Below are positions 13,632 through 43,800 of a stretch of DNA of 57,383 nucleotides, one piece after another. Under the pieces are notes generated by a model. That model ran no database searches. It was not told where the DNA came from and saw only the letters and a program-made list of their open reading frames with translations. The DNA lies in the IMG/VR virus record IMGVR_UViG_3300028615_000012, positions 1 to 57,383 of that record, one strand, 5' to 3'. Both the position numbers and the translations under genes were made by a program. How positions within the stretch are numbered: position 1 is the first letter of the stretch; each line of letters begins with the position of its first letter. This DNA is from a virus.

Positions 13632-13660
13632 ATTCTACCTATGCAATTGGGTATTGACAC
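13632..13660 (-). promoter_or_regulatory. leftward promoter candidate for terS
   Basis: On the leftward strand GTGTCA (13660-13655) and TAGAAT (13637-13632) are separated by 17 bases. Its -35 hexamer overlaps that of the rightward promoter. The -10 matches consensus at 5 of 6 positions and the -35 at 4 of 6. Confidence 0.5.
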
Positions 13661-13682
13661 CCGCGGGCCAATGGCCCATACT
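13654..13682 (+). promoter_or_regulatory. rightward sigma70-type early promoter
   Basis: TTGACA (13654-13659) and CATACT (13677-13682) with a 17-base spacer, about 70 bases upstream of the first gene of the rightward operon. The -35 is a perfect consensus, so host sigma70 recognition is expected. Confidence 0.75.
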
Positions 13683-13756: not shown

Positions 13757-14170
13757 ATGACGAACCGCACCCCATGGACACCGGCCGAGAATGTCGCGCT
13801 GTGTCGTCTGTACTTCACCATGCTGGACGCAGCCCTCGACGGCCGCGACTACAACAAGGCGGCGTTGATCCGCAGCGCACAGGGCGCCGGCGACCAGTGG
13901 CAGAACGACAGCCACGACGCCGACGGTAACGCCGTGCTCCGCAACCGCAGCCGCGGCAGCATAGAGGCCAAGCTGATGAACGCCAGCGCAGCGCACCGTG
14001 ACCTAGTGCCGGGAGCCGAGACAATGGACGGCCACGGCTACCGGGCGCTGGCCAACTACCAAGCCGCGCTCAAGGAAGCGATGGCGGATGCACTCGCAGC
14101 CCGCGGCCACCGCTCGCAGGAATTGACAGCGCACTACGTTAAGCAGCGTGTCGTAGGGCAGCGCCCATGA
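13757..14170 (+). CDS. SANT/Myb-like early protein
   Basis: 137 residues. TPWTPAENVALCRLYFTMLD...YNKAALIR, RSRGSIEAKLMNASAAH and GYRALANYQAALKEAM match a module I associate with the N-termini of some bacterial restriction or DNA-interacting proteins, in which a W..EN..I..YF.ML helix resembles a SANT/Myb-like fold. Here it stands alone. It is the first gene of the rightward operon and overlaps the methyltransferase-like gene by four bases (ATGA), so the two products may act together. The family link is from memory and needs a profile search. Confidence 0.65.
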   Translation: MTNRTPWTPAENVALCRLYFTMLDAALDGRDYNKAALIRSAQGAGDQWQNDSHDADGNAVLRNRSRGSIEAKLMNASAAHRDLVPGAETMDGHGYRALANYQAALKEAMADALAARGHRSQELTAHYVKQRVVGQRP

Positions 14171-15135
14171 TCGCCCGAGCCTACCGGCTGGACGTCACCC
14201 GACTGGCCGCGGACTATTCCGCGGCCGTTCGGGCGGCGCTCACCGACAACCAGCTGGCCAAGGTGCAGCGCGGCGACGCCGTCGCTGACGACTACACCGA
14301 CGCCGGCGAGATCCTCAACGAGTGCATCGCCGCGGCCGTGCCCGGCTGCACTATCGCCGACTACCAGCAGGAGGCCATCGAGGCGCAGCAGCGCGCGGTG
14401 GAGGCTGGCTATCGGCTGTCCCGCATTCTCGTCGCCTGCGAATTCTCAGGAACCGTGCGCGACGCTTTCGCAGCCTGCGGCCATGCCGCCGAGTCCTGCG
14501 ACATACTCCCGAGCGAATCGCCGGGAGGCATTCACCACCAGCGCGACGTCCGAGAGATCCTCGGCGACGGCTACCACCTGATGATCGCCCACCCGCCGTG
14601 CACGTATCTGGCCAGCAGCCAGCTGTGGCGGTGCAAACCACAACACGACGTCCGCGCCAAGACTGGGCACCCCGACGGCTGGCGCGAGGCGCAGCGTCAG
14701 GAAGCGTTACAGTTCGTGCGGGATCTCGCCGCGGCGCCGATCGAGCGCGCCTGCATCGAGAATCCCAAGGGCTGCATCGGCACCGAGGGCGCCGCGCCGG
14801 GCTTCACCCCGACAATGGTGCAGCCCTACGAATTCGGCCACGACGTCAGCAAGCAGACCTACCTATGGTTGCGCGAGCTCCCCGAGCTCAAACGCGACCC
14901 GGCCGACTATGTCGAGCCCCGCGTGATCGAGTACAAGGGCAAGCCGGCGAAACGGTGGGCCAACCAGTCGCCATGCGGCGCCGATCGCACCGGGCCGAGC
15001 GCCGACCGCGGCCACAAGCGCAGCCGGTTTTTCGCCGGCATCGCCCGCGCCATGGCCGAGCAATGGGGCGGGCTGGCCACACGGGCCCGCGCCACCGTGA
15101 CGCCGATCACGGCGCAGATGGAGCTCGGACTGTGA
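14167..15135 (+). CDS. DNA cytosine methyltransferase-like protein
   Basis: 322 residues. After a helical N-terminus of about 85 residues comes a SAM-dependent methyltransferase-like domain: ILVACEFSGTVRDAF (88-101, motif I region), CDILPSE (111-117), AHPPCTYLASS (141-151, the PPC catalytic loop with Cys145) and CIENPKG (196-202, ENV/ENP motif). It ends with VQPYEFGH, KQTYLWL and a GIARAMAEQWG helix, as in a phage family often labelled DNA cytosine methylase. A normal target-recognition domain is not evident, so activity and target are uncertain. It is coupled to the two PP-loop genes downstream. Confidence 0.75.
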   Translation: MIARAYRLDVTRLAADYSAAVRAALTDNQLAKVQRGDAVADDYTDAGEILNECIAAAVPGCTIADYQQEAIEAQQRAVEAGYRLSRILVACEFSGTVRDAFAACGHAAESCDILPSESPGGIHHQRDVREILGDGYHLMIAHPPCTYLASSQLWRCKPQHDVRAKTGHPDGWREAQRQEALQFVRDLAAAPIERACIENPKGCIGTEGAAPGFTPTMVQPYEFGHDVSKQTYLWLRELPELKRDPADYVEPRVIEYKGKPAKRWANQSPCGADRTGPSADRGHKRSRFFAGIARAMAEQWGGLATRARATVTPITAQMELGL

Positions 15136-15917
15136 CCCCGCGCGACATGATCGAGGCCGGCGCGCTGGTTTTCGCGTCGCACTCCGGCGGCAAGGATTCG
15201 CAGGCGATGCTCGCCGAGCTCCGGACCCAGGTTCCCGCCGAACAGCTGGTGATCGTACACGCCAATCTTGGCGAGGTAGAGTGGCCCGGAGTCATAGACC
15301 ACATCCGCGCCAACATTGACGGCGACCAGCTGCACATAGTCCGCGCCGGGAAAACCCTGCTCGAAATGGTCGAGCGCCGCCACGAGTCACGGCCGGACGT
15401 CCCGCCGTGGCCGAGCGCGAAGCACCGCCAGTGCACGAGCGACCTCAAGCGCGGGCCGATCTACAAGTTTATCCGCCAGACCATGAAGGCGCGCGGCGCG
15501 ACGCTGGCTATCAACGCCATGGGCCTACGCGCCGAAGAATCGAGCGCCCGCGCCAAAAAGCAGCCGTGGACCCACAATGCGGCCCTGAGCAAGGCCGGCC
15601 GCACGGTTTACGACTGGCTCCCTATTCACGACTGGCCGACGGCGCGCGTTTTCGAGCGGATCGCCGAGGCTGGCCAGCAACCATTCCACGCATACGAGAG
15701 CGGAAACGAGCGCCTTTCCTGCATGTTCTGCATTCTCGGATGCACCGGCGACCTCCGCAACGCCGCCAGACACGCGCCGGAGCTCGCCCGCAAATACATC
15801 GAGCTCGAACGCCGCACCGGCTATTCGATGTTCCCTAATGCCACGCTCGCCGATCGTCTCGGCTGGAACCAGCCCGAGCCGGCCGCCGAGCCCGACCAAT
15901 TGGAGCTCGCCCTATGA
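15132..15917 (+). CDS. PP-loop ATPase / PAPS reductase-like protein 1
   Basis: 261 residues from GTG 15132, which overlaps the previous stop (GTGA); a longer frame extends upstream but only shadows the previous gene. The PP-loop SGGKDS is at 18-23, followed by a conserved CTSDLKRGPI and GLRAEES region, as in the PAPS-reductase/ATP-pyrophosphatase superfamily. CMFCILGC near residue 200 suggests a metal or thiol centre. Such enzymes adenylate or transfer sulfur; phage copies, like DndC of phosphorothioation systems, are candidates for nucleic-acid modification. The substrate cannot be told from sequence. Confidence 0.85.
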   Translation: MTPRDMIEAGALVFASHSGGKDSQAMLAELRTQVPAEQLVIVHANLGEVEWPGVIDHIRANIDGDQLHIVRAGKTLLEMVERRHESRPDVPPWPSAKHRQCTSDLKRGPIYKFIRQTMKARGATLAINAMGLRAEESSARAKKQPWTHNAALSKAGRTVYDWLPIHDWPTARVFERIAEAGQQPFHAYESGNERLSCMFCILGCTGDLRNAARHAPELARKYIELERRTGYSMFPNATLADRLGWNQPEPAAEPDQLELAL

Positions 15918-16933
15918 GCACAGCCCAGTTTGATCTATTCCGCGAGGCAGAGCCCGCGACCCAGGATGGCAGCCTGCAGCTGCCCGACGCGCCGCTGATT
16001 GTATGCTACGGCGGCGGCGTCGACTCGACGGCCATGCTTATACGCATGGTGCGCGAGGGCATACGGCCGGACGTGATCACGACGGCCGACACCGGCGGCG
16101 AAAAGCCGGAAACCTACGCCTACATCGAGCGGTTTTCGCGCTGGCTGGTTTCGCAGGGATTCCCCGCGGTGCAGCTGGTGAAGTACCAGACCAGCCGCGC
16201 GCCTTATAGCGACCTTGAAGGCAACAACACGGCAAACGAGACGTTGCCATCGCTGGCGTTCGGGATGAAAAGCTGCAGCATTAAGTGGAAGGCGCAGCCG
16301 CAGGATTACTACATCAAGGGCTGTAAGGGCGGCCCCAACCAGTGCGACCCGCACCCGGTATGGCTGGAAGCGCAGCGCCGCGGCGTGAAGCCTTGCAAGT
16401 TAATCGGCTATGACGCCGGCCCGGCGGATCTCCGGCGCGCTGGCCGCCTGAAAACGTCAGACGCCAGCTTTCAGTATGCCTACCCGTTGCAGCAATGGGG
16501 TATGGATCGCGGCGACTGCATCGCCCTAATACTCGACGAGGGTTTGCCCGTGCCGATTAAAAGCGCCTGCTGGTTCTGCCCGGCTTCGCAAAAGTGGGAA
16601 CTCTACTGGCTGGCCGGCAAACACCCGCGCCTATTCGAGCGCGCCCTACAGATGGAGCACCGCGCCATGGTGGGCCGGCATAGCCGCTGGCCATGGCGGG
16701 ATTGCGACTACGGCCCGGACTGGGAGCGCCTCATTCACGAGCCGGCCGACCAATGGCCGCAGGTAGATATTACCGTCGGCCTCGGACGCTCGTTCGCTTG
16801 GAATCACTGGGCCCGGCAAAACGGCGTAACCGACAGCGCCGGCCGCGTGATCCTGGACCCGCAGGAATGCCTACGGCGGGCCAATGAATTGAAAGCGCAA
16901 GGCGGCAATGCGGCCGACTTGCGGACATGCTAG
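15914..16933 (+). CDS. PP-loop ATPase / PAPS reductase-like protein 2
   Basis: 339 residues starting with ATGA overlap. The PP-loop GGGVDST is at 33-39 and ADTGGEKPETYAYI follows, as in phage-encoded PAPS-reductase-like proteins. It has several cysteines likely to bind metal (SCSIKW, CKGGPNQCDP, ACWFCPASQKWELYWL). It differs clearly from the preceding PP-loop protein, so the pair is not a recent duplication. Being adjacent and translationally coupled, they may form one pathway with the methyltransferase-like protein. Confidence 0.85.
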   Translation: MSTAQFDLFREAEPATQDGSLQLPDAPLIVCYGGGVDSTAMLIRMVREGIRPDVITTADTGGEKPETYAYIERFSRWLVSQGFPAVQLVKYQTSRAPYSDLEGNNTANETLPSLAFGMKSCSIKWKAQPQDYYIKGCKGGPNQCDPHPVWLEAQRRGVKPCKLIGYDAGPADLRRAGRLKTSDASFQYAYPLQQWGMDRGDCIALILDEGLPVPIKSACWFCPASQKWELYWLAGKHPRLFERALQMEHRAMVGRHSRWPWRDCDYGPDWERLIHEPADQWPQVDITVGLGRSFAWNHWARQNGVTDSAGRVILDPQECLRRANELKAQGGNAADLRTC

Positions 16934-16951
16934 ACCCGAGGAGGTAGGACA
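16934..16951 (+). promoter_or_regulatory. RBS cassette copy 2
   Basis: ACCCGAGGAGGTAGGACA directly before ATG 16952, immediately after the stop of the second PP-loop gene. Confidence 0.85.
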
Positions 16952-19039: not shown

Positions 19040-19411
19040 ATGAAAGACAGAATGCAAGCATGGGACTGGCCCAGTGTTCGCGATCGCTTCGCGACCCTTT
19101 CAGACGCGCTGGAAATGCCGCCGGATAGTTGCGGCGAGCTCGCCCAGGAACTACAGGATATTGCCGGCTGGATTGCCCTGCAGGGCGCCAGCAAGGCGGG
19201 GGTGTTTTGGGCTTGCCCGACTTGTGGCTGTACCGAAATCGAGGGGCAGGCATGGGTACACCTGAACGAGGACCGGCTATCGAATAGCGAACCGCCGTCC
19301 GATTATTATTGGTGTCCGCAATGCGACATTAACGGCGATGACGGACATTTTGAGAACGGTTGCCCCGAGGCCCAGGAATGGCGGCCGATAACCGAGGAGG
19401 CTACACAATGA
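19040..19411 (+). CDS. zinc-ribbon-like early protein
   Basis: 123 residues. Two CxxC pairs, CPTCGC and WCPQCD, about 32 residues apart, form a likely zinc ribbon; the preceding half is helical. Ends TEEATQ, which is encoded by the next cassette. Role unknown. Confidence 0.7.
   Translation: MKDRMQAWDWPSVRDRFATLSDALEMPPDSCGELAQELQDIAGWIALQGASKAGVFWACPTCGCTEIEGQAWVHLNEDRLSNSEPPSDYYWCPQCDINGDDGHFENGCPEAQEWRPITEEATQ
19391..19407 (+). promoter_or_regulatory. RBS cassette copy 6 (inside coding sequence)
   Basis: ACCGAGGAGGCTACACA directly before ATG 19408, slightly diverged from the other copies. Confidence 0.75.
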
Positions 19412-23464: not shown

Positions 23465-24130
23465 CTATTTTGCGAGCGGGCTGTTGATGCGGCAGCCGAT
23501 ACGGTCGCCGCCGGCGCACTGGCCGGGCGGGCAGTTACACCATGTAACGTGCCGTGACAGCGTGTTACGGAGGCGCTCCTGGGCCTCCACCGGCGTCTCC
23601 TGCATGTCGCCGTAAATGTCGATTAGCTCGGCAAGCAGATCTCCCGGCGCATGTCCAGAATCGGCAAGGGGCGCGGATTCGTTCCTTACGGTTTCTATGA
23701 TGTTCTTAGTCTGCGGGGTATCATCCGGCGGGGGCTTCCTTTCTACGCGACCCTCGCGCAGCTGCTCCTCGCGGAGCTCCTCGACCGACTTCCCGGTCAA
23801 CTTCGACGCCAGATCGAGCAGCTTGTCCTCGTCGACCTCGGCCGGCGGATGAATTACCGGCTGCTCTTTGACGACCTTGTCGGCCTGCTCCATCTGCTCG
23901 TAGGACATGACACCGATGCGGCCGTCGGCATGCTTTACGATCCAGCCGAACTCAGGGATCTCCGTCTCGGTGTCGTTGACGTTGAGCCACTCTTTGTTGT
24001 CGACGGTCATCAGCCACTTGCTGTTCATCCACGCCGGCCACGTCTTTTCCTGATACCGCGTAGCCGGCGTCAGCTGAAAGGCCTCGATCACCGTGCCGTC
24101 TGGCATTTTGTAGCGGAAATCAGCCGGCAT
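23465..24130 (-). CDS. unknown protein downstream of ParB-like gene
   Basis: 221 residues from ATG 24130, inside the last 11 bases of the ParB-like gene. The first 90 residues form a compact domain (WPAWMNSKWLM, FGWIVKHADGRIGVM), then a low-complexity acidic/proline linker, then a cysteine-containing tail (TWCNCPPGQC). Similar N-terminal segments occur in phage proteins of unknown function. Confidence 0.7.
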   Translation of the reverse strand: MPADFRYKMPDGTVIEAFQLTPATRYQEKTWPAWMNSKWLMTVDNKEWLNVNDTETEIPEFGWIVKHADGRIGVMSYEQMEQADKVVKEQPVIHPPAEVDEDKLLDLASKLTGKSVEELREEQLREGRVERKPPPDDTPQTKNIIETVRNESAPLADSGHAPGDLLAELIDIYGDMQETPVEAQERLRNTLSRHVTWCNCPPGQCAGGDRIGCRINSPLAK

Positions 24131-24845
24131 CGTCGCCACCCTTGCGCGCCTGCACAACCAAGCCGGCGAGCCACGTCGACACGTATTCCGCATCCGCGAC
24201 GTCGTCTTTGGTCAGCGTCATCTTGTTGGCTGCGTCGGGCCCGGAGTACGGAAACGCCTTGATCAGCTTGTGCGCCTCGCGGAGCTCGGCCAGATCGACC
24301 TCCTCCTGGGAGACGTCACCGCTGTCGATGTAGTCCTCGGAGTCGGGGTCCTTGGGCTCGGCCTTTTTCTTTTTCTTTTTCGGCTTGTCGTCGTCGGTCA
24401 TCATCTGTTGATGAATGTTCCGCACCGTGCGATCGGTGACGCCGCATATATCGGCGATCTCCTCCTGCGTCATCTTTGAGATCTCCGGATCCTTGAGGGC
24501 CATCTGCACCGCATGCCGCTTGTCGGCATTCGTTCGCCGTAAGCCGTGCGCCTGATTGGCTCCGAGCGCCTCTACCAGCGCGTCGTGCATGTTCCCCTCT
24601 TTGACCTCGCAAACAACCTCTGGCCAGCCCAGATTGACCATTGCATAGAGCCGGTGAAAGCCGTCGACCAAGACGTTGCGCTCGGTGTTTTTCTCGCGGT
24701 AGACCAGCAACGGCGGAAACTCGGAGCCATTCTCGAGCGCCTCCTGATAATCGTCGATTACTGACCGATCCAGCCGCACCCGAACCTGCGTCGCTGCAGT
24801 CGCCTCGATGTTGTCGATCTCAATTGTCTCGTAGACCGGCTCCAT
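24120..24845 (-). CDS. ParB/Sulfiredoxin-like DNA-binding protein
   Basis: 241 residues from ATG 24845 (TGATG overlap). The N-terminal ParB-like fold includes RLDRSVIDDYQEAL, FPPLLVYR and the conserved LVDGFHRL (59-66); AHGLRRTNADKR follows. A helix-turn-helix (MTQEEIADICGVTDRTVRNI, about 124-143) and a lysine tract come next. Phage ParB-like proteins can act as nucleases, partition proteins or transcription regulators; no ParA is present, so a nuclease or regulator role is more likely than partition. Confidence 0.85.
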   Translation of the reverse strand: MEPVYETIEIDNIEATAATQVRVRLDRSVIDDYQEALENGSEFPPLLVYREKNTERNVLVDGFHRLYAMVNLGWPEVVCEVKEGNMHDALVEALGANQAHGLRRTNADKRHAVQMALKDPEISKMTQEEIADICGVTDRTVRNIHQQMMTDDDKPKKKKKKAEPKDPDSEDYIDSGDVSQEEVDLAELREAHKLIKAFPYSGPDAANKMTLTKDDVADAEYVSTWLAGLVVQARKGGDDAG

Positions 24846-33475: not shown

Positions 33476-33822
33476 AGCTCTACCACCCCTTGTTCGCGCC
33501 ATCGGATCTCGTCCTCGTTGAGCGGATCGTCCTCCCGCTGATTGGCTTCGACCTCAAACGGATTTTTCTTGTAGCCGTAGCGGATCTGATACCAGATGTA
33601 CGTCGAGTAAAACTTGAGCCGGCCGAGGCTGGCAACCTGATAGCAATGCTGTAGCTCGTGCCGATACAGCCGATCGGTCGCCGACTGATACCACGCCTTG
33701 TAGACGTCGTCGGTCCGGTCGTAGTCGACGTGCTTGACTTCCCGCAGCCACATCCAGGGCCACAGCACCATGCCGCGCGCCCAGAACATCCACCATGCGT
33801 TATTGACGATTTTGAAGTTCAT
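33472..33822 (-). CDS. HExxH metallopeptidase-like protein
   Basis: 116 residues from ATG 33822 (TAATG overlap). YRHELQHCYQVASLGRLKFY contains a zinc-binding HELQH at 55-59, followed by an aromatic stretch (STYIWYQIRYGYKKNP) and FEVEANQRE, where the Glu could be the third ligand. This layout resembles small DUF4157-like peptidases. It may aid entry or lysis; substrate unknown. Confidence 0.7.
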   Translation of the reverse strand: MNFKIVNNAWWMFWARGMVLWPWMWLREVKHVDYDRTDDVYKAWYQSATDRLYRHELQHCYQVASLGRLKFYSTYIWYQIRYGYKKNPFEVEANQREDDPLNEDEIRWREQGVVEL

Positions 33823-36800
33823 TACGGTCCAAGCCTCGTAAGTGTCATCCAACATCCACGGTGCATAACGACAGCCGTTGCGTCAGACACGTTTTGTGCC
33901 CACTGGAAATCGAGCGTACCGCCAGTCGTGGCGTTGGTGGTGAAGTGCGCAATGACATGGACACCCATCTGCCCCACGCCGCTGCTGCTGATACTGATTG
34001 ATGTCTCGATAGCTCGGACAAGTTCTGATGATGGCGTGGCAGAAAAGTCCTGCCCTGCGTGTTGCTTCCAATAGCCTTCTTGCGTCGTCTGACTGAAATT
34101 GAATCGCCACTTGAAGTCGGGGTTTGGGTCGCCGTCATAGCTAAAGAACATGTCGATTCGGTACGACGTGTCGGCCTCGAGATTCCACCCGCTAAGGTGC
34201 GTATCGTTGGTGAACGTCGTGCTGTTGCTAATCGACTGGCTGGCTGTCTTGTATTTCGTGACCTCGTGGAATTGACCGGCAACCGGAAAATCTTGGCCGG
34301 TATCGTCCGTAAACATGAGCGTGTTAGGAGCATCATTTCTTACCCACAGCTGACCTTGGCCGGCCAGATCCGTCGACGCCGCAGCCCGCTCGACGATGTA
34401 GACAACCTGCGAGCATTCCAGATCGCCGACGATGTCGACCGTAGTGGCCTGAATGTCAATCTCCGTGACTACGCCAGCGTTGCGGAATATCTGGAACACA
34501 TTGAAGTCCAGAACATCCGAATCGTCGTAACCGGAGAGGAACAGATCGCCGGCCGACTGGCGCCAGCGATAGACCTTTTCATCCAGAGCGGCGTCAGTCT
34601 CGCGAACCTCGATGTATGGCGCCGTCCCTTCGATCTCGAGATTGCCGGCGACGTCGAGCACCGTGCCATCCCACGTCAGGTTTGCGCTGCCCTCGATCTC
34701 GTCGGCCGTTGCCGCACCGACTGCGATCTGGTTGTCCGCGATGGATCCACCAATGGATGCGGCCAGCAAGTCGTGATCAGTGCCGGCGTCATCGGTAAAG
34801 ATGATCGTGTTCGGCGTGTCATTGCGGACCCATAGCTGACCTTGGCCTGCGGCAGGACTATCGTTGGTTGCCTGCTCGGCAAGGAATAGCGGTGCGTTTG
34901 CGGCGACCGTGAACGAGCCACCTGAGCCCGTTGTCCATCCGGCCGTAATCGTCGTCGACTGAGCGCCGACATCGTTCAGCTGCCAGTCGTTGCCGGCGTC
35001 ATCAGTAAACATCGGCACGTTTGGCGTGTCATTGCGGACCCACCACTGGCCTCGCTTCGCAGCATCGGCACCTGCAGATGCGCGCTCCATCTGGTACAGA
35101 GGCGGGCCGGCAGTCGACGCCATATTGTTAGCGCCGATCTGGACGTAATTGGCAATGCCGTTGGCTTGAAATACCGGAAGCGTACCGTCTTTGTCGTAGA
35201 CCTCGAATAGATCCGTTTCAAGCTGAATGCGACCGGTGCCAGCAAGGCTCTGCGTTTCGATTTTGAGAATCGTGCCGTTGGCGACGTACTCGCAGACCTG
35301 CGTCGCGCCGTCCCATTGTTCGATGATCGAGGCGCCAGCCGATTCCGGCCGAATCCGCACGTTGGCGTTTTCTCGCAAACCTGGAAGCGGGCTGCCGCCG
35401 GTCGTTACCTCCCCGTAGTACAGTGAAAACGCAGTCGTTGGGGTTTCAACAGCTGGCTCCGGCGACAGCGTAATCTGGACTGGCGTCGTGGCTGCCCAAA
35501 AGGTTCCTGAACCGTCTTTATTGACACAGGCAACCTCGAAATACCCGGTTTGCTCGGTCACGGAAATAACGGCGAACGTCTGCCAAGTAGAATCATCTTC
35601 TGGGTCGACAAAAGTCATCAGTGATCCCTGAGTAAGCCGGCGCAGGAGATCCTGCCTATCCGTGCCATCGGCATCGAGATCGTCAATGGACATCCGCTGT
35701 ATCGAGCCAATGGTTAAGCTATCGAAACGGAAGTTGCCGTTGCCGGGGTCGACTATTGTCGTGCCCGTGTCGTAATTCCACGTACTTGTGTGCGGTGAAA
35801 ACCCGCCCGCCGGGCTTGGGTCGCTCGTCAGATTGCTGAACGTGAACATCATCGGCTCACGCACAGTCGTCGAGAAGGCGTTGCCGTTGGCGACATACGC
35901 GACCGGGATCTCCCACCAGCCAGTGTTGTCGACTGCCGGACCGGTTGCCTCGTACACGGCCCAGACCGCGAGATCCTTTGTTTCAGCAATTCGGATCTGA
36001 GTACCGGCCTGTATGGCGCTCAACAGGCCTGCGGGATCTCGGAGCGTCAGTCCACCGTCATCGACAGCGATGGCCGTCACCAACGTCTGATCAGCATTGT
36101 TGAGTTTAAACCGCTGCTGCGTCGGGTCGCTCATGACCTGATTTGTATAGTCGTAGTCCCAGTATTCGGCGGTTTGGCCAAGATCGTAGACGGTCAGCGC
36201 GCGCTTGAGATCATTCGACACACCGGTCACGGTCTGGGCAACTGCAAGACCACCGTTGTTCTGAGCTCGCGCCCGCATAACTTCTGACGAGCCCGCATAG
36301 AAAAAGCTGGTTTCGCCGAGATTGTCGCACCGAACAAATGTCAAATTGCCGATACGTAACTCCACATCTCGACCGGCGTTCGCGTTCAGAAAAGTGCTGC
36401 TGTTCTGGTTGTGCTCGAGAAATGTGTGAGCAGAGCCGCCAGCCAGCGTCGACTGAATACGCACAGAATCATCTTGAGAGAAGTTACGGATCTCAAAATC
36501 GCCATTGCTTTGCGGTCCGACGTGGGCGTGTACGGCGCCGGTGTCGTCCTCGAAAACCAACCGCTTCTCCTCGGTAAAGCCAGTATTGACTCCGCGGATC
36601 CGCGCGTTGACGGTGTCCATGACAAAGTCGGTGCCCTTGAACTCGATCGGCAGCGTCGGTGCATTGAACCACCACAGCGCGCCGGTGTTTTGCACCTGCG
36701 CCAGCGCGATGACGCCGGTGTCCTCGCCGTACATGTTGAAAATGGCTTGCTGTGCATCGCCGCGGAGCGTCGACGACTCGCCGATCGTGACGACGGCATT

Positions 36801-37856
36801 GGCGTTCTGATCCGGATTGATGATCAGATTGTTGATGCCGGGGCCGACCCGCATGGTCGTGTTGGTCGCCGAAGCGTCGTAGACCTCGAGCGAATTGTCG
36901 ACGGCGTTGTACCGAATGTTGATCTCGCCGCCGGCCACGGTGCCGAACTGAACCTCGCCAGCGTCGTCCAGGATCAGATTCGATCCCGTGAGATCTATGT
37001 CGTTGGTCGTCGTGTTGCCGTTGTCGGTAACTGACTGCAGGGTATCGACGACGTTGAGCACCCAATCGGTGCCGGCGTCGTCAGTAAACACGAGCACATT
37101 CGGCGTGTCGTCACGGACCCAGATCGTCGCGAACGACGCGATCGGGCCGGGGAGCGGATTGGTTCCAGAGTTGCGCTCACCCATAACCAGCACGGCGCCA
37201 TCGGGCGCGCCGTCACCGAGAATTCGGAACTCATCGAGCCCGGTGAACTGAAACAGATCGACAATGCCCGTGGCACTGATCTGCATACCAGTCGGTGACA
37301 CGCTGCCGATTTCGACTGTGCCATCGGCCGTCGTGTTGCCGAGCTCGATGCGGCCAGCATTGCTGATAATGAACGCCGGCGTGTAAGGCGTGGCCGGGTT
37401 GATGATGATGTCGTTGGTCGTCGTGTTGCCAACATCCGTGACCGCCTGCAAGCCAGCCGCAGCCGGATTGTCGGGATCGAAATAGATCTGGAACGCGAGC
37501 GCATCGGTGCCAATGCGAATCGGATCAGTGTCGGTCGTCAGGATATACATGATCGGGTTGTCGCTACCCGACCGGCCGGCCGTGATCAGTGTGCTTTCGG
37601 TCGCGTCTCGTGTGCCGTCGAAGTCCGGCGCACGGCTCCATGAGCTCGAAAGATTGACCTCCCAGATCCCGTTCTCAATCGGGTTGGTCTGGCCGTAGAG
37701 CAGGATTCGATCGCCGTCACTCCATGTCCAGCCGTCGATCGGCCCAGGATCCCCGGAGAGCACCTGATTGACGTTTGTCGCGCGCTTGACCGGGACCTTG
37801 ATGGCCTTGCTGGCCAACACGCCATTGAATCTGTCCGTTGAGTTACTGACTGCCAT
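33822..37856 (-). CDS. large tail fibre protein with repeats
   Basis: 1344 residues. The N-terminal ~160 residues share the anchoring-domain layout of the junction-spanning fibre (ATNVNQVLSG, NPIENGIWEV, RAPDFDGTRD, NTTTNDI). At least four repeats of the type WVR(N/D)DTPN-x4-FTDDAGTDW occur near residues 245, 945, 1010 and 1175. The rest is beta-rich and the C-terminus forms a small domain ending CWMTLTRLGP. It probably binds the host surface. Confidence 0.85.
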   Translation of the reverse strand: MAVSNSTDRFNGVLASKAIKVPVKRATNVNQVLSGDPGPIDGWTWSDGDRILLYGQTNPIENGIWEVNLSSSWSRAPDFDGTRDATESTLITAGRSGSDNPIMYILTTDTDPIRIGTDALAFQIYFDPDNPAAAGLQAVTDVGNTTTNDIIINPATPYTPAFIISNAGRIELGNTTADGTVEIGSVSPTGMQISATGIVDLFQFTGLDEFRILGDGAPDGAVLVMGERNSGTNPLPGPIASFATIWVRDDTPNVLVFTDDAGTDWVLNVVDTLQSVTDNGNTTTNDIDLTGSNLILDDAGEVQFGTVAGGEINIRYNAVDNSLEVYDASATNTTMRVGPGINNLIINPDQNANAVVTIGESSTLRGDAQQAIFNMYGEDTGVIALAQVQNTGALWWFNAPTLPIEFKGTDFVMDTVNARIRGVNTGFTEEKRLVFEDDTGAVHAHVGPQSNGDFEIRNFSQDDSVRIQSTLAGGSAHTFLEHNQNSSTFLNANAGRDVELRIGNLTFVRCDNLGETSFFYAGSSEVMRARAQNNGGLAVAQTVTGVSNDLKRALTVYDLGQTAEYWDYDYTNQVMSDPTQQRFKLNNADQTLVTAIAVDDGGLTLRDPAGLLSAIQAGTQIRIAETKDLAVWAVYEATGPAVDNTGWWEIPVAYVANGNAFSTTVREPMMFTFSNLTSDPSPAGGFSPHTSTWNYDTGTTIVDPGNGNFRFDSLTIGSIQRMSIDDLDADGTDRQDLLRRLTQGSLMTFVDPEDDSTWQTFAVISVTEQTGYFEVACVNKDGSGTFWAATTPVQITLSPEPAVETPTTAFSLYYGEVTTGGSPLPGLRENANVRIRPESAGASIIEQWDGATQVCEYVANGTILKIETQSLAGTGRIQLETDLFEVYDKDGTLPVFQANGIANYVQIGANNMASTAGPPLYQMERASAGADAAKRGQWWVRNDTPNVPMFTDDAGNDWQLNDVGAQSTTITAGWTTGSGGSFTVAANAPLFLAEQATNDSPAAGQGQLWVRNDTPNTIIFTDDAGTDHDLLAASIGGSIADNQIAVGAATADEIEGSANLTWDGTVLDVAGNLEIEGTAPYIEVRETDAALDEKVYRWRQSAGDLFLSGYDDSDVLDFNVFQIFRNAGVVTEIDIQATTVDIVGDLECSQVVYIVERAAASTDLAGQGQLWVRNDAPNTLMFTDDTGQDFPVAGQFHEVTKYKTASQSISNSTTFTNDTHLSGWNLEADTSYRIDMFFSYDGDPNPDFKWRFNFSQTTQEGYWKQHAGQDFSATPSSELVRAIETSISISSSGVGQMGVHVIAHFTTNATTGGTLDFQWAQNVSDATAVVMHRGCWMTLTRLGP

Positions 37857-37858
37857 GT

Positions 37859-40800
37859 CTAATCATCCCTGCTCGGCCCGAATAAATACTCGTACAGGGC
37901 CGTGTCATCATCCTCGAAAATTGCCCGATATGTCTTGCTGATCTGGCCAGTCGGCGTGTGTGTTGCTGTACCCACGACATCGAGGAACGCATCGACGGCC
38001 GCAGCATCCGCCTCTCCTTGTCCGGCTTGCTCGATCAGTCGCCAGCTGTCGTTCAAGAATACTCCGACTGGCGTGTTGCCGCCGCCATACTTCGCGGCGA
38101 GGAGCTCGCGGGCATACGGTACACCGGAAATCATTGAGTCTGCGGTGACTGCTGCAGTCCACTTGGCCCACTCCTCCGGCTCATCTTCCTCCTCCGGAAG
38201 CCGGTTATACAGTAGCGCGGAGGCCATGCCCTCGACCGTGAACAGAAGGAACATGTCGGCCGTGTACTTCGCAATCTGAGCCGGACTACGGAAGTTGGTC
38301 GACTTGGTTTTTTCGTAAGCAATGTTGCCCTTGGCCAGCATGTAGGACAGTAGCGTCGACCATATCCTGATCCACTGGGACTGACGGTTTTTGCGCAGGC
38401 CGCTGGTGCCACGCTCGAAACCAGAGCGATCAGAGAAAAAGCCGCTGGTCTGTGATGCCTCGACCTGAGTGTCCGCGTAAATGACCGCGTCGGCCTCGGA
38501 GAGCTCGAGCTCATTCAGCCCCTTGTGGTAGGCACCGAGCCATGTCGTGATGTCGACCACCTGCTGCGCTTTGGCGATCGGGAGAAAATACGTGTAGGCG
38601 AGCCGCGTCATAACGACTTTACTGGCCGTTGGCGTCGTGCCAAAAATGCTCTCGAGATGCGCGCGAGTGTCCTGCACGTCCTTGTTCCACGCGCCGATCT
38701 CATAGCGAGCGTTCAGAAACTTCGACGTTTCCATGACATGCTTCCACGCGGCCCGCGGATTCTGCATGAACTTGCCGAGGCCGCGGCCGTAGTGTGTCGC
38801 GCCGATAACCGCAATCGTCTGAAAGACGCCGGTGAACTGCAGGAACATGACTGCCATGTTCCAGCCGAGTTTCGCCTTTGTGAATCCCGTGCGTATCCAA
38901 GCGGTGCTCGCCTCCCAGATGTTTTCGCTTGGGAGCTCGCCCACGGCCGCGTCAGTGAGCCAGAGATTGAGCGCCTCGAGGGAATGCTCGTTGCCCGTTT
39001 TCTTGAACGCCTTGCGGACCTCACGGGAATCGAGCAGCCGCTTGATGTAGAGCGTTTCATCGCCTATGGCAATGTCGCGAATAACCTCGCGCAAATGCGT
39101 GTCGATATTGTTGAGGCCCAGTCGCACCACCTTGCCGTGATTGCGAACGCGATTGTAGGTTGCGCCGGCTCGCGTGTTCGCTGTCACCATTGAGCCGAAA
39201 GCGACCCGGTTGAACTCGTCCTGTATGTCCTGCGGCGCCGCTTCGGCCTCATAGCTTGAATCGTATCGGAGCGGATAGTAGCCGCCGGCCAGCGTTACCT
39301 CAGTGCCGTCGGCCGTGCGGATCGTGAACGGCAACGGCTCCACCTTTTGCGGAGCCACGCCGCGTCGACGCTTTTCAGCCTCGAAAATCTGATCTCGATA
39401 GGTGTCCAGATAATCCCAGATCCCCTGCACAAAACCCCAGTCCTGCGCCGTCAGATGCGCCAGCATTTCATCCACAGCCTGCTGCGTAAACACTGGTGCA
39501 CCCTCGTCCACGCCGCCCAGTAACGCCGCTCGGTTCGACTGTGACCCCCAGTTAAGCGCCACGGACAAAATCTCCGATCGCGAATAGGTGCGATCCAGCG
39601 ACTCGATCCGAATGTTTCGCTTGGCCAGCTGACCGAGCTCGGCTTTCGAGTAATGCTGTTGATAAATTTTGGACACATCCTCCTGCGCCTTGTGCAGCAT
39701 CGGGATCAATTTCTCAGCGTAAGCCCGCCGCATTGGCGCAATGATTCGCCGGGTCAGCGCACCAAATCCGGCGTTATCCAGGACGCGGGCAATCGAACTC
39801 GGTCGCAACCATGTGCGTATGCCCTGATCAATGCTCTTGCTAACCTGCTCGCGACCAGTGCGGACGCCACCCGGCCGGAGATCAATGCGCTCATTGTTTT
39901 CAAACAGTGACTCGACGACGTCGGCCTCGGCTTCCGAAAAGTCGACCCACTGATCGTTGACGTAATGCTTGTTGCTCGCGACCGCGGAGTGCTCGATCTG
40001 TTTGACCAGATCGCGCATGCCCATGAATTCCTCGAGCGTGAGATCCTGCCAGTTCACGCGGTCATCAAAGATCCGCGCCAGTGTCGAAGGCGTGACAATG
40101 AACCGGCCCTTTTCTACGTCGTCACGAAGGCTCTGCAGTCGCTTATCCATGTCGACCTGTGTCAGCGATCGACGGCGCAGATCAACCCCCTCGAGGATTG
40201 CCTGTATGTCCTCGAGCACACCGGCCTTACCCATCTTGCGTTGAATCGTTGGCCGATTGAATTTCGACAGATACCGCTGGCCAGCTTGTGCATCGCGCTG
40301 CGCTTTGTTTGCCGCGCGCCACATCTCGAGCGCATTGATCTGCTGCATCTTGTGCTTGTAGGCGGCCTGATAGTCTCGTCGCCGCATTGCCTCGAACGCC
40401 ATGCGTCCCGCTTTTCGCTCGGCCGCGAGATACTGGTGCGGCTTGATGTTGCGGATCTCTTTGGCTGCAATCGCCTGCCGGGCGGCAGCGCGAATCATCT
40501 GCACTTCCTTGCGACTTGGCAGCTGCGCTTTGTTGGCGGCGATGGCCTCGCGCTCCTGCCGACGCTCGGCCTGCTGCGCAGCGCGTACTGCCGGCCTGTC
40601 CTCGCGAACCATCCGCCGGAGAGCTCGCAGTTCTGCAGCAAGGATTTCCGCGCGCTTGTGATCGTGTACGGCGCGCACGGCATTGTCAGCCAATGTGCCG
40701 TCCGTCAATGGATCCGGATAGAGCTCGAGCATGCGGCGATCGGTTTCGGCTTTGATCCACGCCTTCATCTTTGGCGCCTTGATCATCTCCTCGATCATTT

Positions 40801-43800
40801 TCATGGCGTCTTTGTAGCCGAACATCTGCGCGGCTACCTGGACGTCGGTGCCGCCGTCCCGGCTGTAGATGTACGGCTTCGGCAGGCGATTGAGCATGGA
40901 CTGATCGCCGGCAACGAGCTCGAGCAGGGATTCTTTGTCGATCTTGAACGGGGCCGTCGGCGACGGCTCACCGTTGGGCTGCTGATCTTTTTGCAGCTTC
41001 GCAAGCGCCACATAGACGCGCGTGTTGTACGCCTCCTCCTCCACTTCGGCCTGAATAGCCTTGCGCTGCTCCTTCCACCACGCCAGCTGATCACGCCGCA
41101 TGGCTTTGATTAGCCGTCGTGTCTCGCGATCAACAGCATCATCATGCGCCGCCTGCAGTCGTCGCTTGTAGAGCGTGAACTCCTCCTGCGACATGCGCGC
41201 CTCCTCGGCGTTCAGGAACAGCGCGGAAAAGCCGTGTGACTCCTCGGCCAGTTTGATCTGCTCGTCACTGGCCAGCATGCGGTCCATAACGCCGCGGACC
41301 TCGTCGGTTAGCTCGACATTGGCCATCTGCGTCAGCTTGCGGTAAATCGCCTGCAGCCAGCGACGGAACGCATTGAACGAATCCTGTAGCTCGAGACTGG
41401 GGGCCTTGCCCTCCATCGTGTATTTCTCAAACGCCCGTGCCCACTTTTCGTGATGCTCGGTTGTTATCTGTGAGCCATCGGTGACGCCAAGGAAATTCAG
41501 AATTTTCGACCAGTCATCTTTGATCTGTTGCGGAGCGTCCTCCATGGCAGCAACACGACGCATGACTTCCAGATACAGATGCCCGGTTTCGTGAATGAAC
41601 GTCGAAAAGTCCGCGTTCTCGGTCAGACGGATGTAGCCTCGGCGCAAATCATCAAAGTCGATGTAGCCTCGCTCGTCCTGTTTATAGCGCCCATCCTTCG
41701 GCGGGATCGTGCCCTGATCCGCGCGGCTTTTGAGCTCGTCGCCGTACAGGTGATCCAGGAACCGGAAGTCATCGGCGAAATTGACGATGTTCTGCACCGC
41801 CTCGGTCGCCAAGTCGGGTGTAACCATGGCAAACGCCGATGCGTTTGTTGCATCCAATGCCTGAAAAAATGCCGCCGCGCCACCGCTCGATCGCAAGTTT
41901 TCCATCTGCTCTGTTGTCAGCGCGATGTGACCGATCAGTCGGTGTCGATTGTCGAGCAGATAAACGCCGGGATTTCGGCCAGCCTGCCGAATCATCGTGC
42001 GCATTGATTCGGGTCCTGTAATCGGCGCGGCGTCTGAGGGCGCAGCGACCAGTATTCGTTCTGTAACCGGAACACGCTTTTTGCGCCGCGCTTTTGTCGG
42101 CACGATCGGACCCAAGTCGCTGCCGTCTGCCGCCATGCGCCCCGCCTTACCGCCGGCGGCGACAATCACATGGCCCATGATGGTGACGCCGGTGCCGGCC
42201 AGCGTGTCCTGCAGCTTTTTCGTAATTCGCGCGTCGGCTTGTGACGGCTCGTTTTTGCCCGAAGGATGGTTGTGGCCGAACCAAACGTATTTCGCGCCCT
42301 TCGTATTGTGGATAGCGCCTGCCAGAACACTCGGAAAGACACCTGCGCCGTCCGTCGTGCCCTTCGTATGATGTATGACGGCGATCGGTTTTTGCTGCTC
42401 ATCCAGCACCAGCGCGACGAAATTCTCCTGCGCATTTTTTCGCACAGGCGCCAGAACATGCGCGGCATCTTCCGGTGTTTCGACCTTGTCAATGCCGATG
42501 TTAAATTGCTTGGTTTCCTCGTGCTTGACGCGAATCTTGTAGTTCGCAATAGATTCGGATTCGCGTATCTTGCCGGACAACGCGGCCGCACCGTACATGT
42601 CGCTGTCGACTGGCTCGCGCACCATATCGTCGCCGTCCTGTTCGGCAGGATTCAGTCCAGTCGACGTGTCGATGTAGTTACCGCTTTCATCGACGATGAT
42701 GCCGCGGTCCGGCTCCTCGAGCACGGTCCGAGGATCCTCGAGCAGCTTGTGCAGCTGGCTGTTCTGGCCAGCCTGCGGATTGACTGCACCCTCTGGCGCT
42801 ACAATGCCTCCCTCTCGATAGCCCGCCGCCACTCGATCACGCTGGCTGATTCCCGTAGCAGCTGCAGCGCCCGGTTGTACTTCATCTGCAGCACCCGGCC
42901 GTTCTGCACCCCGAGGCTCTGGTTGCGTAGGGTCAGTAATATCGCCTCGAGTTCCTCTTTGTTCTGTCCCGACATCTTGGAGGCTGTTGCCAAGATTGTT
43001 GAAAGAGTCGATGTCCTGCGCGTCCGCGAGCCACCGGTAGATTTCGTGGTTGGCATTGAGCGTATCCTCCAATCGTTTCCGCAACCCGGCCATGACTTTC
43101 GGCTCCTGGATCGCGGTCGCCATGGCGTTCTGCAAAGCAAAAATAAAATCATTGTCGTGCGACCACTCCGCGTAGTGAGCAATCTCGTGGATCATCGTGG
43201 TCAGCATCGACGCGGCTGTTACGTTGGCCGGCACTTCCCGGCCGTCCGTCTCGGCACGGGTACGCAACTCGCGAGGATCGGCCGCCGGGTTTATAAACAT
43301 CATCTGGCCCGGCACCTTGGTATGGACGCCGTAGTGCATCGGGCCCAATACGCTGACGCCGGCACCTATCTTGTCCAGACCGCCAAACATGTTTTTGTCG
43401 CCCTTGACGGCGATCAAATTGCGGGTGTCCAAAAACACCCGGCCGATCTCGTAAAAGTATTTATGGACCCGCTCCTCGCCGAACTTGTCGTAGAGCGCAT
43501 CCATGAGATCCGAGCCGGCGTACTCCTCGTGAGTCGACAACAATAGCTGGCGATCGTCTTTGAATTTCTTTTGGTTGTGCAGGATTGGTTCTTTGTTCGG
43601 AATTAAATCCTGATCGACCTGATACTCCGAAGTATCTACCCCGCTCAGATCTCGCATTTCCTCCGGCGTAATACGCTGCTGCTCGATGCCATCGACCACC
43701 AGAACACCGTCACGAACCTCGAGCATCGAACCCTCATCGAGACGCTCGACCAGACCTCCCCGCTGCCGCTCAGGCGGTTCCAGTTTGAGCTCGGGGCCGC

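What the first reader, a model, noticed from the sequence alone, without database searches (positions are those of the whole stretch)
13757..16933. SANT-like protein, methyltransferase-like protein and two PP-loop ATPases in one coupled unit
Four genes overlap by four bases each behind a strong early promoter. The methyltransferase-like protein has the PPC and ENP motifs but no clear target-recognition domain. Two distinct PAPS-reductase-like PP-loop proteins with extra cysteines follow. This combination could install a sulfur-containing or other unusual DNA modification, or interfere with host phosphorothioation-type defence, and I do not know it as a described system.
Basis: partly seen in the sequence, partly recalled or inferred. 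Interest (0 to 1): 0.7.

Follow-up and report, generated by a model that had tools for sequence, protein, structure and literature searches.

The report
Phage methyltransferase pair plus sulfur-enzyme pair
A bacterial virus carries two small gene modules side by side, a probable DNA-methylating pair and a pair of enzymes that look built to handle sulfur; relatives show the two modules can live apart, so this is most likely an ordinary anti-restriction locus with an unexplained, possibly sulfur-adding extra, not one new DNA-modification pathway.

Summary
The four coupled genes are real (13757-16933; overlaps ATGA, GTGA, ATGA). They are best read as two modules. Module 1: P1 (137 aa, the N-terminal domain of bacterial NOV_C/DUF3883 candidate-defence proteins, PADLOC PDC-S36) plus P2 (322 aa, PHROG 757 DNA-methyltransferase family, invariant P[PS]C and ENP, tiny target-recognition region, unique helical N-terminus). 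P1 lies directly upstream of P2 in 23 non-redundant contigs, and the P2 N-terminus occurs only there. Module 2: P3 and P4, PP-loop enzymes with one shared set of three invariant cysteines; P4's best solved-structure matches include the [4Fe-4S] tRNA thiolases TtuA and NcsA, and the PAPS-reductase catalytic motif is absent. Related phages keep module 1 but may lack P3, P4 or both; P3+P4 also occur in phages without a detected DNA methyltransferase. No Dnd/Ssp partner genes were found in the window. Restriction-site loss in this lineage is extreme (22-55% of expected 6-bp palindromes completely absent in genomes above 30 kb), and the full cassette does not measurably relax it. Best reading: a phage self-methylation pair in an anti-restriction locus, plus accessory sulfurtransferase-like enzymes of unknown target. 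A sulfur DNA mark is not excluded, nor supported.

The parts
13654..13682 (+). sigma-70-like promoter TTGACA-17-CATACT
   Evidence: 10/12 consensus match; 2 sites found vs 0.6 expected in the region; similar site at about the same distance in L002, L258, L005, L114
13740..13751 (+). leader CCCGAGGAGGTA with Shine-Dalgarno sequence, repeated before other early genes
   Evidence: 6 copies in the window vs 0.13 expected, also at 16935, 17237, 17996
13757..14170 (+). P1: stand-alone N-terminal domain of NOV_C/DUF3883 (PDC-S36-like) proteins; proposed partner of P2
   Evidence: PDC-S36 residues 1-105, E 8.6e-16; 15 of 15 cassette homologues match; bacterial homologues carry a C-terminal NOV_C domain that P1 lacks
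14167..15135 (+). P2: PHROG 757 DNA methyltransferase family protein
   Evidence: E 7.5e-46 over residues 84-312; Rossmann SAM-methyltransferase-type fold hits including plant MET1 and fungal DIM2, marginal E
14167..14415 (+). P2 N-terminal helical domain (residues 1-83)
   Evidence: four helices predicted, mostly pLDDT above 90; present only in P2 proteins with P1 directly upstream
14593..14601 (+). P2 PPC motif (residues 143-145), putative catalytic Cys145
   Evidence: Cys in 83 of 83 homologues
14758..14766 (+). P2 ENP motif (residues 198-200)
   Evidence: conserved in 81-82 of 83 homologues
15132..15917 (+). P3: PP-loop ATPase, PAPS-reductase-like/BrxP-like
   Evidence: PF01507 8.1e-10; phrog_424 8.3e-40; BrxP 4e-17
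15183..15200 (+). P3 PP-loop SGGKDS (residues 18-23)
   Evidence: conserved in 85-86 of 87 homologues
15432..15434 (+). P3 Cys101, first of three invariant cysteines
   Evidence: 86 of 87 homologues, one gap
15720..15731 (+). P3 CxxC (Cys197, Cys200)
   Evidence: 85 of 87 homologues, two gaps
15914..16933 (+). P4: second PP-loop ATPase, SspD-like, with C-terminal extension ending in Cys
   Evidence: phrog_424 6.1e-26; SspD 1.4e-13; fold hits TtuA, TilS, NcsA
16010..16027 (+). P4 PP-loop GGGVDS (residues 33-38)
16274..16276 (+). P4 Cys121, aligned with Cys101 of P3
   Evidence: 67 of 67 homologues; profile alignment of P3 and P4
16568..16579 (+). P4 CxxC (Cys219, Cys222)
   Evidence: 66 of 67 homologues, one gap
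16928..16930 (+). P4 C-terminal Cys339
   Evidence: conserved in the full-length cassette homologues; 39 of 67 in the wider set

Best explanation
Two functional modules share one early operon. Module 1 is a two-component phage DNA methyltransferase: P2 is the catalytic subunit (probably C5-cytosine-type chemistry through Cys145), and P1, held against P2's N-terminal helical domain, supplies the DNA recognition that P2 lacks; it methylates the phage's own DNA after entry and protects some restriction sites. Module 2, P3 and P4, are paralogous PP-loop ATPases that hold a three-cysteine iron-sulfur cluster and use ATP to activate a substrate and insert sulfur, in the manner of TtuA/NcsA/TtcA; the substrate is most likely a nucleic acid. 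Shown: gene structure, linkage, conserved motifs, family matches, modularity. Inferred: P1-P2 contact, DNA recognition by P1, methylation, the iron-sulfur cluster, sulfur transfer and its target.
For: P2 is PHROG 757 DNA methyltransferase. That family cross-matches Pfam C5 methylase PF00145: both models hit G052 27.4-28.1 kb, and phrog_757 also hits the PF00145 genes of G067 and G063. P[PS]C and ENP are nearly invariant. P1 lies directly upstream of P2 in 23 non-redundant contigs, plus one contig with reversed order, L281. P2's N-terminal domain co-occurs with upstream P1 without exception (redundant loci: 55 with both, 76 with neither). P1-P2 is kept at the same place beside the terminase genes in the contigs of this lineage that reach far enough. 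An ArdC N-terminal-domain gene follows P1-P2 in L010 and a full ArdC follows a lone P1 in L282. P3/P4: the three cysteines are invariant and align between P3 and P4; P4 fold hits include TtuA and NcsA with clusters; ECG[LIM]H is absent from all 117 P3 and 104 P4 hits. Across 50 virus records, methyltransferase genes lie within 1 kb of P3/P4-like genes in 7 records vs 1.7 expected (P 0.001).
Against: P2 itself has no Pfam methylase match; a direct profile comparison with four canonical phage C5 methylases found nothing, though both profiles were thin; fold hits are marginal (best E 0.0018, low TM). P1 relatives also occur without P2 (L268, L279, L282, L283). P1-P2 linkage is largely within one phage lineage, so shared ancestry explains part of it. 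The model of P4 is weak around the cysteines (pLDDT below 50 at 96-125). Full-cassette genomes avoid restriction sites as much as the others.
Confidence: 0.42

Rival explanations
1. All four genes form one pathway that writes a sulfur-containing or otherwise unusual base or backbone mark on phage DNA.
For: Translational coupling in the window; all four together in 7 non-redundant lineage members including the window; P3/P4 similarity to SspD, DndC, BrxP; methyltransferases near PP-loop genes more often than chance in other phages, e.g. Pseudomonas phage Dolphis and Pseudoalteromonas phage KB12-38.
Against: P3 absent from 56.7 kb record G013, P4 absent from 56.2 kb record G007, both absent from G015 and G018; P3+P4 in records with no detected C5, N6/N4 or PHROG 757 methyltransferase (G035, G036, G038, G033); gene order changes.
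Confidence: 0.12
2. P3/P4 act against host phosphorothioation-type defence (Ssp, Dnd, BREX type 4) as decoys or sulfur-stealing homologues of SspD/DndC/BrxP.
For: Profile similarity to exactly these proteins; no writer partners in the window.
Against: PP-loop and cysteines are conserved as in an active enzyme; similarity is far below curated DndC cut-offs (29.8 vs 290 bits).
Confidence: 0.1
3. P1 is a counter-defence decoy: a free copy of the sensing domain of PDC-S36/NOV_C proteins that occupies their target or partner.
For: Matches only the N-terminal part of the 280-aa defence model while bacterial homologues carry a C-terminal NOV_C domain; a lone P1 sits next to ArdC in L282.
Against: Very tight pairing with P2 and with P2's own N-terminal extension; no paper naming PDC-S36 was found in the library.
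Confidence: 0.15
4. P3/P4 thiolate tRNA (or protect phage translation) and have nothing to do with phage DNA.
For: Best fold neighbours of P4 include tRNA thiolases TtuA and NcsA and the tRNA enzyme TilS; P3/P4 occur without detected methyltransferase genes.
Against: Closest sequence profiles are the DNA phosphorothioation enzymes; proximity to DNA methyltransferases exceeds chance.
Confidence: 0.2
5. P3/P4 are ordinary auxiliary metabolic PAPS reductases that boost host sulfate assimilation.
For: Automatic annotation of the family and published phage papers assume it (PMC9144972, PMC10434257).
Against: Catalytic ECG[LIM]H motif in 0 of 117 P3 and 0 of 104 P4 family hits; two paralogues side by side; no other sulfate-assimilation gene recognised among the window proteins examined.
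Confidence: 0.06

Closest known systems
PHROG 757 phage DNA methyltransferases (e.g. Burkholderia phage Bcep1 gp12, Rhizobium phage Pasto)
   Same: Core domain with PPC and ENP motifs, short target-recognition region
   Different: P2 has an extra helical N-terminal domain and a dedicated upstream partner P1
PDC-S36 / NOV_C (DUF3883) candidate defence proteins
   Same: N-terminal about 105 residues
   Different: P1 lacks the C-terminal NOV_C domain and is a phage gene coupled to a methyltransferase
SspD/DndC/BrxP sulfur-transfer enzymes of phosphorothioation systems
   Same: PP-loop domain; significant profile similarity
   Different: No DndA/D/E or SspA/B/C in the window; far below curated DndC score; two paralogues
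[4Fe-4S] PP-loop tRNA thiolases TtuA, NcsA, TtcA
   Same: PP-loop fold, three conserved cysteines, TtuA and NcsA among P4's best fold matches
   Different: Different cysteine spacing (TtuA/TtcA spacing from memory); no tRNA-binding domain identified; substrate unknown
Phage PAPS-reductase-like genes, PHROG 424, next to DNA methyltransferases (phages Dolphis, PseuP_222, KB12-38)
   Same: PP-loop gene next to a DNA methyltransferase
   Different: There the annotated methyltransferases are of other kinds and no P1 is annotated

Membership tests
C5-cytosine DNA methyltransferase (PF00145) | catalytic Cys in P-[P/S]-C and Glu in E-N-[V/P] | tested here: met
   Cys145 in 83/83 and Glu198 in 82/83 homologues
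C5-cytosine DNA methyltransferase (PF00145) | significant match of P2 to the family profile | tested here: inconclusive
   no Pfam match for P2, profile comparison negative but thin; PHROG 757 and PF00145 cross-match in G052, G067, G063
C5-cytosine DNA methyltransferase (PF00145) | substantial target recognition domain between motifs VIII and IX/X | tested here: not met
   only about 50 residues, partly pLDDT below 50
C5-cytosine DNA methyltransferase (PF00145) | methylates DNA cytosine | not testable with these tools
   needs expression and sequencing
PAPS/APS reductase (CysH) | PP-loop nucleotide-binding domain | tested here: met
   PF01507 for P3 (8.1e-10); P4 only 0.045, below cut-off
PAPS/APS reductase (CysH) | catalytic ECGLH motif; CC-type cluster motif in APS reductases | tested here: not met
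   0 of 117 P3 and 0 of 104 P4 family hits
Dnd/Ssp/BREX-4 phosphorothioation | SspD/DndC/BrxP-type sulfurtransferase above curated score | tested here: not met
   similar (E 1e-8 to 4e-17) but 29.8 vs 290-bit cut-off for DndC
Dnd/Ssp/BREX-4 phosphorothioation | ATPase and DNA-recognition partners (DndD/E or SspC/B), optional desulfurase | tested here: not met
   none among 61 window proteins scanned, which left out a few called genes including two very large ones at 33822-45622
[4Fe-4S] PP-loop thiolases | three conserved Cys ligands plus PP-loop | tested here: met
   P3 C101/C197/C200, P4 C121/C219/C222 invariant
[4Fe-4S] PP-loop thiolases | cluster binding and sulfur insertion | not testable with these tools
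   needs purified protein
PDC-S36 / NOV_C protein | N-terminal domain | tested here: met
   E 8.6e-16; 15/15 homologues
PDC-S36 / NOV_C protein | C-terminal NOV_C domain | tested here: not met
   no PF13020 in P1; present in L193, L195, L196
SANT/Myb-like DNA-binding domain | profile or fold match | tested here: inconclusive

The most novel reading that the evidence does not exclude
A phage cassette in which a split methyltransferase (catalytic P2 guided by P1, a domain shared with a bacterial candidate-defence protein) marks sites where P3/P4 add sulfur to a base or phosphate, giving a phage-encoded sulfur DNA modification made without Dnd or Ssp partners.
Probability: 0.08. Interest if true: 0.88.

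Novelty: new variant of a known kind. Interest (0 to 1): 0.45.

Why it matters
PHROG 424 'PAPS reductases' are commonly counted as sulfur-metabolism genes of phages; in these two families the catalytic motif of that reaction is missing and an iron-sulfur sulfurtransferase pattern is invariant, which calls the label into question and can be tested by cysH complementation. A methyltransferase whose specificity may sit in a separate small protein related to a defence-protein domain would be an unusual design and is easy to test with two genes. Restriction-site loss in this lineage is extreme and differs between relatives, which makes it a useful system for asking which sites a phage methyltransferase really protects.

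Tried and rejected
Sequence search of solved structures with all four profiles: only weak or chance hits. Dnd/Ssp partners in the window: none; the defence-model hits were helicase/restriction-type models, most plausibly the phage's own DNA helicase. Domain fusions in long P3/P4 homologues: no informative extra domain. A constant third partner of P3-P4 outside the lineage: none. Other modification enzymes replacing P3/P4 downstream of P2 in relatives: none recognised apart from an ArdC-type gene. Relaxed restriction-site avoidance in full-cassette genomes: an apparent difference in eight genomes of unequal sequence length disappeared with 21 genomes and a uniform threshold (P 0.31; 0.54 above 30 kb). 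Mirror-tree test: P1-P2 distances correlate (r 0.56) no better than P2-terminase (0.64), so it gives no separate support for co-evolution. Direct C5-methylase profile comparison: negative. Literature: no description of this four-gene unit found; the library lacks most subscription journals. Searches failed on a limit of loci per call and were repeated in smaller form.
Full report
OBSERVATION. The four reading frames are present as described and overlap by four bases at each junction. The upstream gene on the other strand is the small terminase subunit; large terminase, head-tail adaptor, major head and tail proteins follow on that strand, so the window is a tailed phage. A TTGACA-17-CATACT site ends 74 bases before P1; a similar site at a similar distance is found in L002, L258, L005 and L114. 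A leader CCCGAGGAGGTA precedes P1 and recurs before three of the following early genes.

WHAT EACH GENE IS. P1 matches no Pfam or PHROG family, but residues 1-126 match the N-terminal 105 positions of PADLOC PDC-S36 (E 8.6e-16), as do all 15 cassette homologues. In Janibacter, Leptolyngbya and a Desulfobacterales genome the same domain heads proteins of about 280 residues that end in NOV_C (PF13020). P1 is thus a stand-alone copy of that N-terminal domain. 'SANT-like' is plausible by eye but untested. P2 belongs to PHROG 757 'DNA methyltransferase' (E 7.5e-46 over residues 84-312). Its link to C5-cytosine methylases rests on Cys145 and ENP conservation, on places where PHROG 757 and PF00145 both match, and on marginal fold hits that include MET1 and DIM2; a direct profile comparison failed. 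Residues 1-83 form a confidently predicted helical domain. P3 and P4 are PP-loop proteins of PHROG 424; P3 is closest to BrxP and P4 to SspD among defence models. Both carry three invariant cysteines at homologous positions. P4's predicted structure (mean pLDDT 71) finds TtuA, TilS, NcsA and other PP-loop enzymes ahead of PAPS reductases. The catalytic ECG[LIM]H motif of PAPS reductase is absent from every homologue examined.

LINKAGE AND MODULARITY. All four genes occur together in the window and six other non-redundant contigs, in two orders: 1-2-3-4 and 4-1-2-3. P1 and P2 alone, or with only P3 or only P4, occur in the others. Whole-record searches confirm that the missing genes are not elsewhere in the record: P3 is absent from G013 (56.7 kb), P4 from G007 (56.2 kb), both from G015 (54.7 kb) and G018 (56.5 kb); the records may still be incomplete. 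P3+P4 without P1/P2 occur in other phages, several with no detected methyltransferase of three families. P2's N-terminal domain was found only where P1 is directly upstream (55 loci with both, 76 with neither, redundant loci counted). L281 has P1 downstream of a PHROG 757-type protein that lacks the domain. P1 relatives without P2 exist (L268, L279, L282, L283).

HOW FAR SHARED ANCESTRY EXPLAINS IT. In 20 of the 24 non-redundant P1-P2 contigs a homologous large terminase was found, 55-100% identical among them, so P1-P2 is a fixed part of one phage lineage. Terminase-anchored contigs at 61% identity or more that extend far enough beyond the terminase contain P1-P2, or a P1 or P4 piece at a cut end; more distant ones (53% or less) with enough sequence do not. 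Pairwise-distance correlations do not set P1-P2 apart from the terminase. The strongest arguments for functional pairing are therefore the coupling, the co-occurrence with P2's extra domain, and the independent P1/methyltransferase neighbourhood in L281.

MECHANISM. The most economical model is a phage self-methylation pair (P2 catalytic, P1 recognition) plus an accessory pair of sulfurtransferase-like enzymes. The anti-restriction setting is supported by ArdC-type genes next to P1 or P1-P2 and by the extreme loss of restriction sites. In the window 13 of 45 palindromic hexamers expected at least six times are completely absent (for example ATCGAT 0 of about 34 and AGCGCT 0 of about 23), and related genomes lack other sets; CAGCTG is over-represented here but absent from six relatives. 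The cassette therefore cannot protect all sites. Full-cassette genomes are not less purged than others (P 0.31 over 21 genomes, 0.54 among those above 30 kb), so a protective role of P3/P4 has no support from this test. Similar purging is seen in some unrelated environmental phages (control mean 13% absent, up to 50%). Methyltransferase genes do lie near P3/P4-like genes more often than expected in 50 records (7 within 1 kb vs 1.7 expected, P 0.001), and annotated isolates show the same (Dolphis, PseuP_222, KB12-38); that is a hint of a functional tie, not proof.

KNOWN OR NEW. Each family is known; PAPS-reductase-like genes in phages are usually annotated as sulfur metabolism (PMC9144972, PMC10434257), and a recent paper notes their wider occurrence in defence systems and mobile elements and calls for study (PMC11437467). 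Papers on phosphorothioation and BREX type 4 (PMC10853773, PMC12839542) do not, in the passages searched, describe this unit. I file it as a new variant of a known kind: a phage methyltransferase with a dedicated small partner, next to a mobile PP-loop pair.

Noticed in passing
window 1-57383; L327-L364: Complete absence of many palindromic hexamers (13 of 45 with expectation at least 6 in the window; up to 23 of 42 in G015) and of some non-palindromic hexamers on both strands (CACTGC, CCCAGC, CTCCAG in the window); a hexamer tends to be either near expectation or at zero, and related phages lack different sets.
   Followed up: partly
window 13740, 16935, 17237, 17996, 26854, 29911 (minus): Leader CCCGAGGAGGTA repeated before early genes, 6 copies vs 0.13 expected; a shorter version precedes the gene at 19040.
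   Followed up: partly
window 24120-24845 (minus): ParB-like gene (PHROG 1033, E 4.9e-16) in the replication region; ParB-like proteins accompany PAPS-reductase-like proteins elsewhere (IbrA/IbrB, from memory), here about 7 kb from P4 and on the other strand.
   Followed up: no
L282 7983-9494; L010 8375-9752: P1 homologue followed by an ArdC anti-restriction protein in an unrelated phage contig; ArdC N-terminal-domain gene directly after P1-P2 in L010.
   Followed up: partly
L291 (Pseudoalteromonas phage KB12-38): Methyltransferase, PAPS-reductase-like, ligase-like, hypothetical, PAPS-reductase-like and C5 methylase genes in a row, with an annotated antirestriction gene upstream.
   Followed up: no
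L193 6004-7849 (Janibacter limosus): A P1-domain/NOV_C protein sits directly after an HNH_2 endonuclease gene, a possible restriction pair.
   Followed up: no
window 37859-45622 (minus): A single reading frame of about 2590 residues in the structural region, not annotated here.
   Followed up: no
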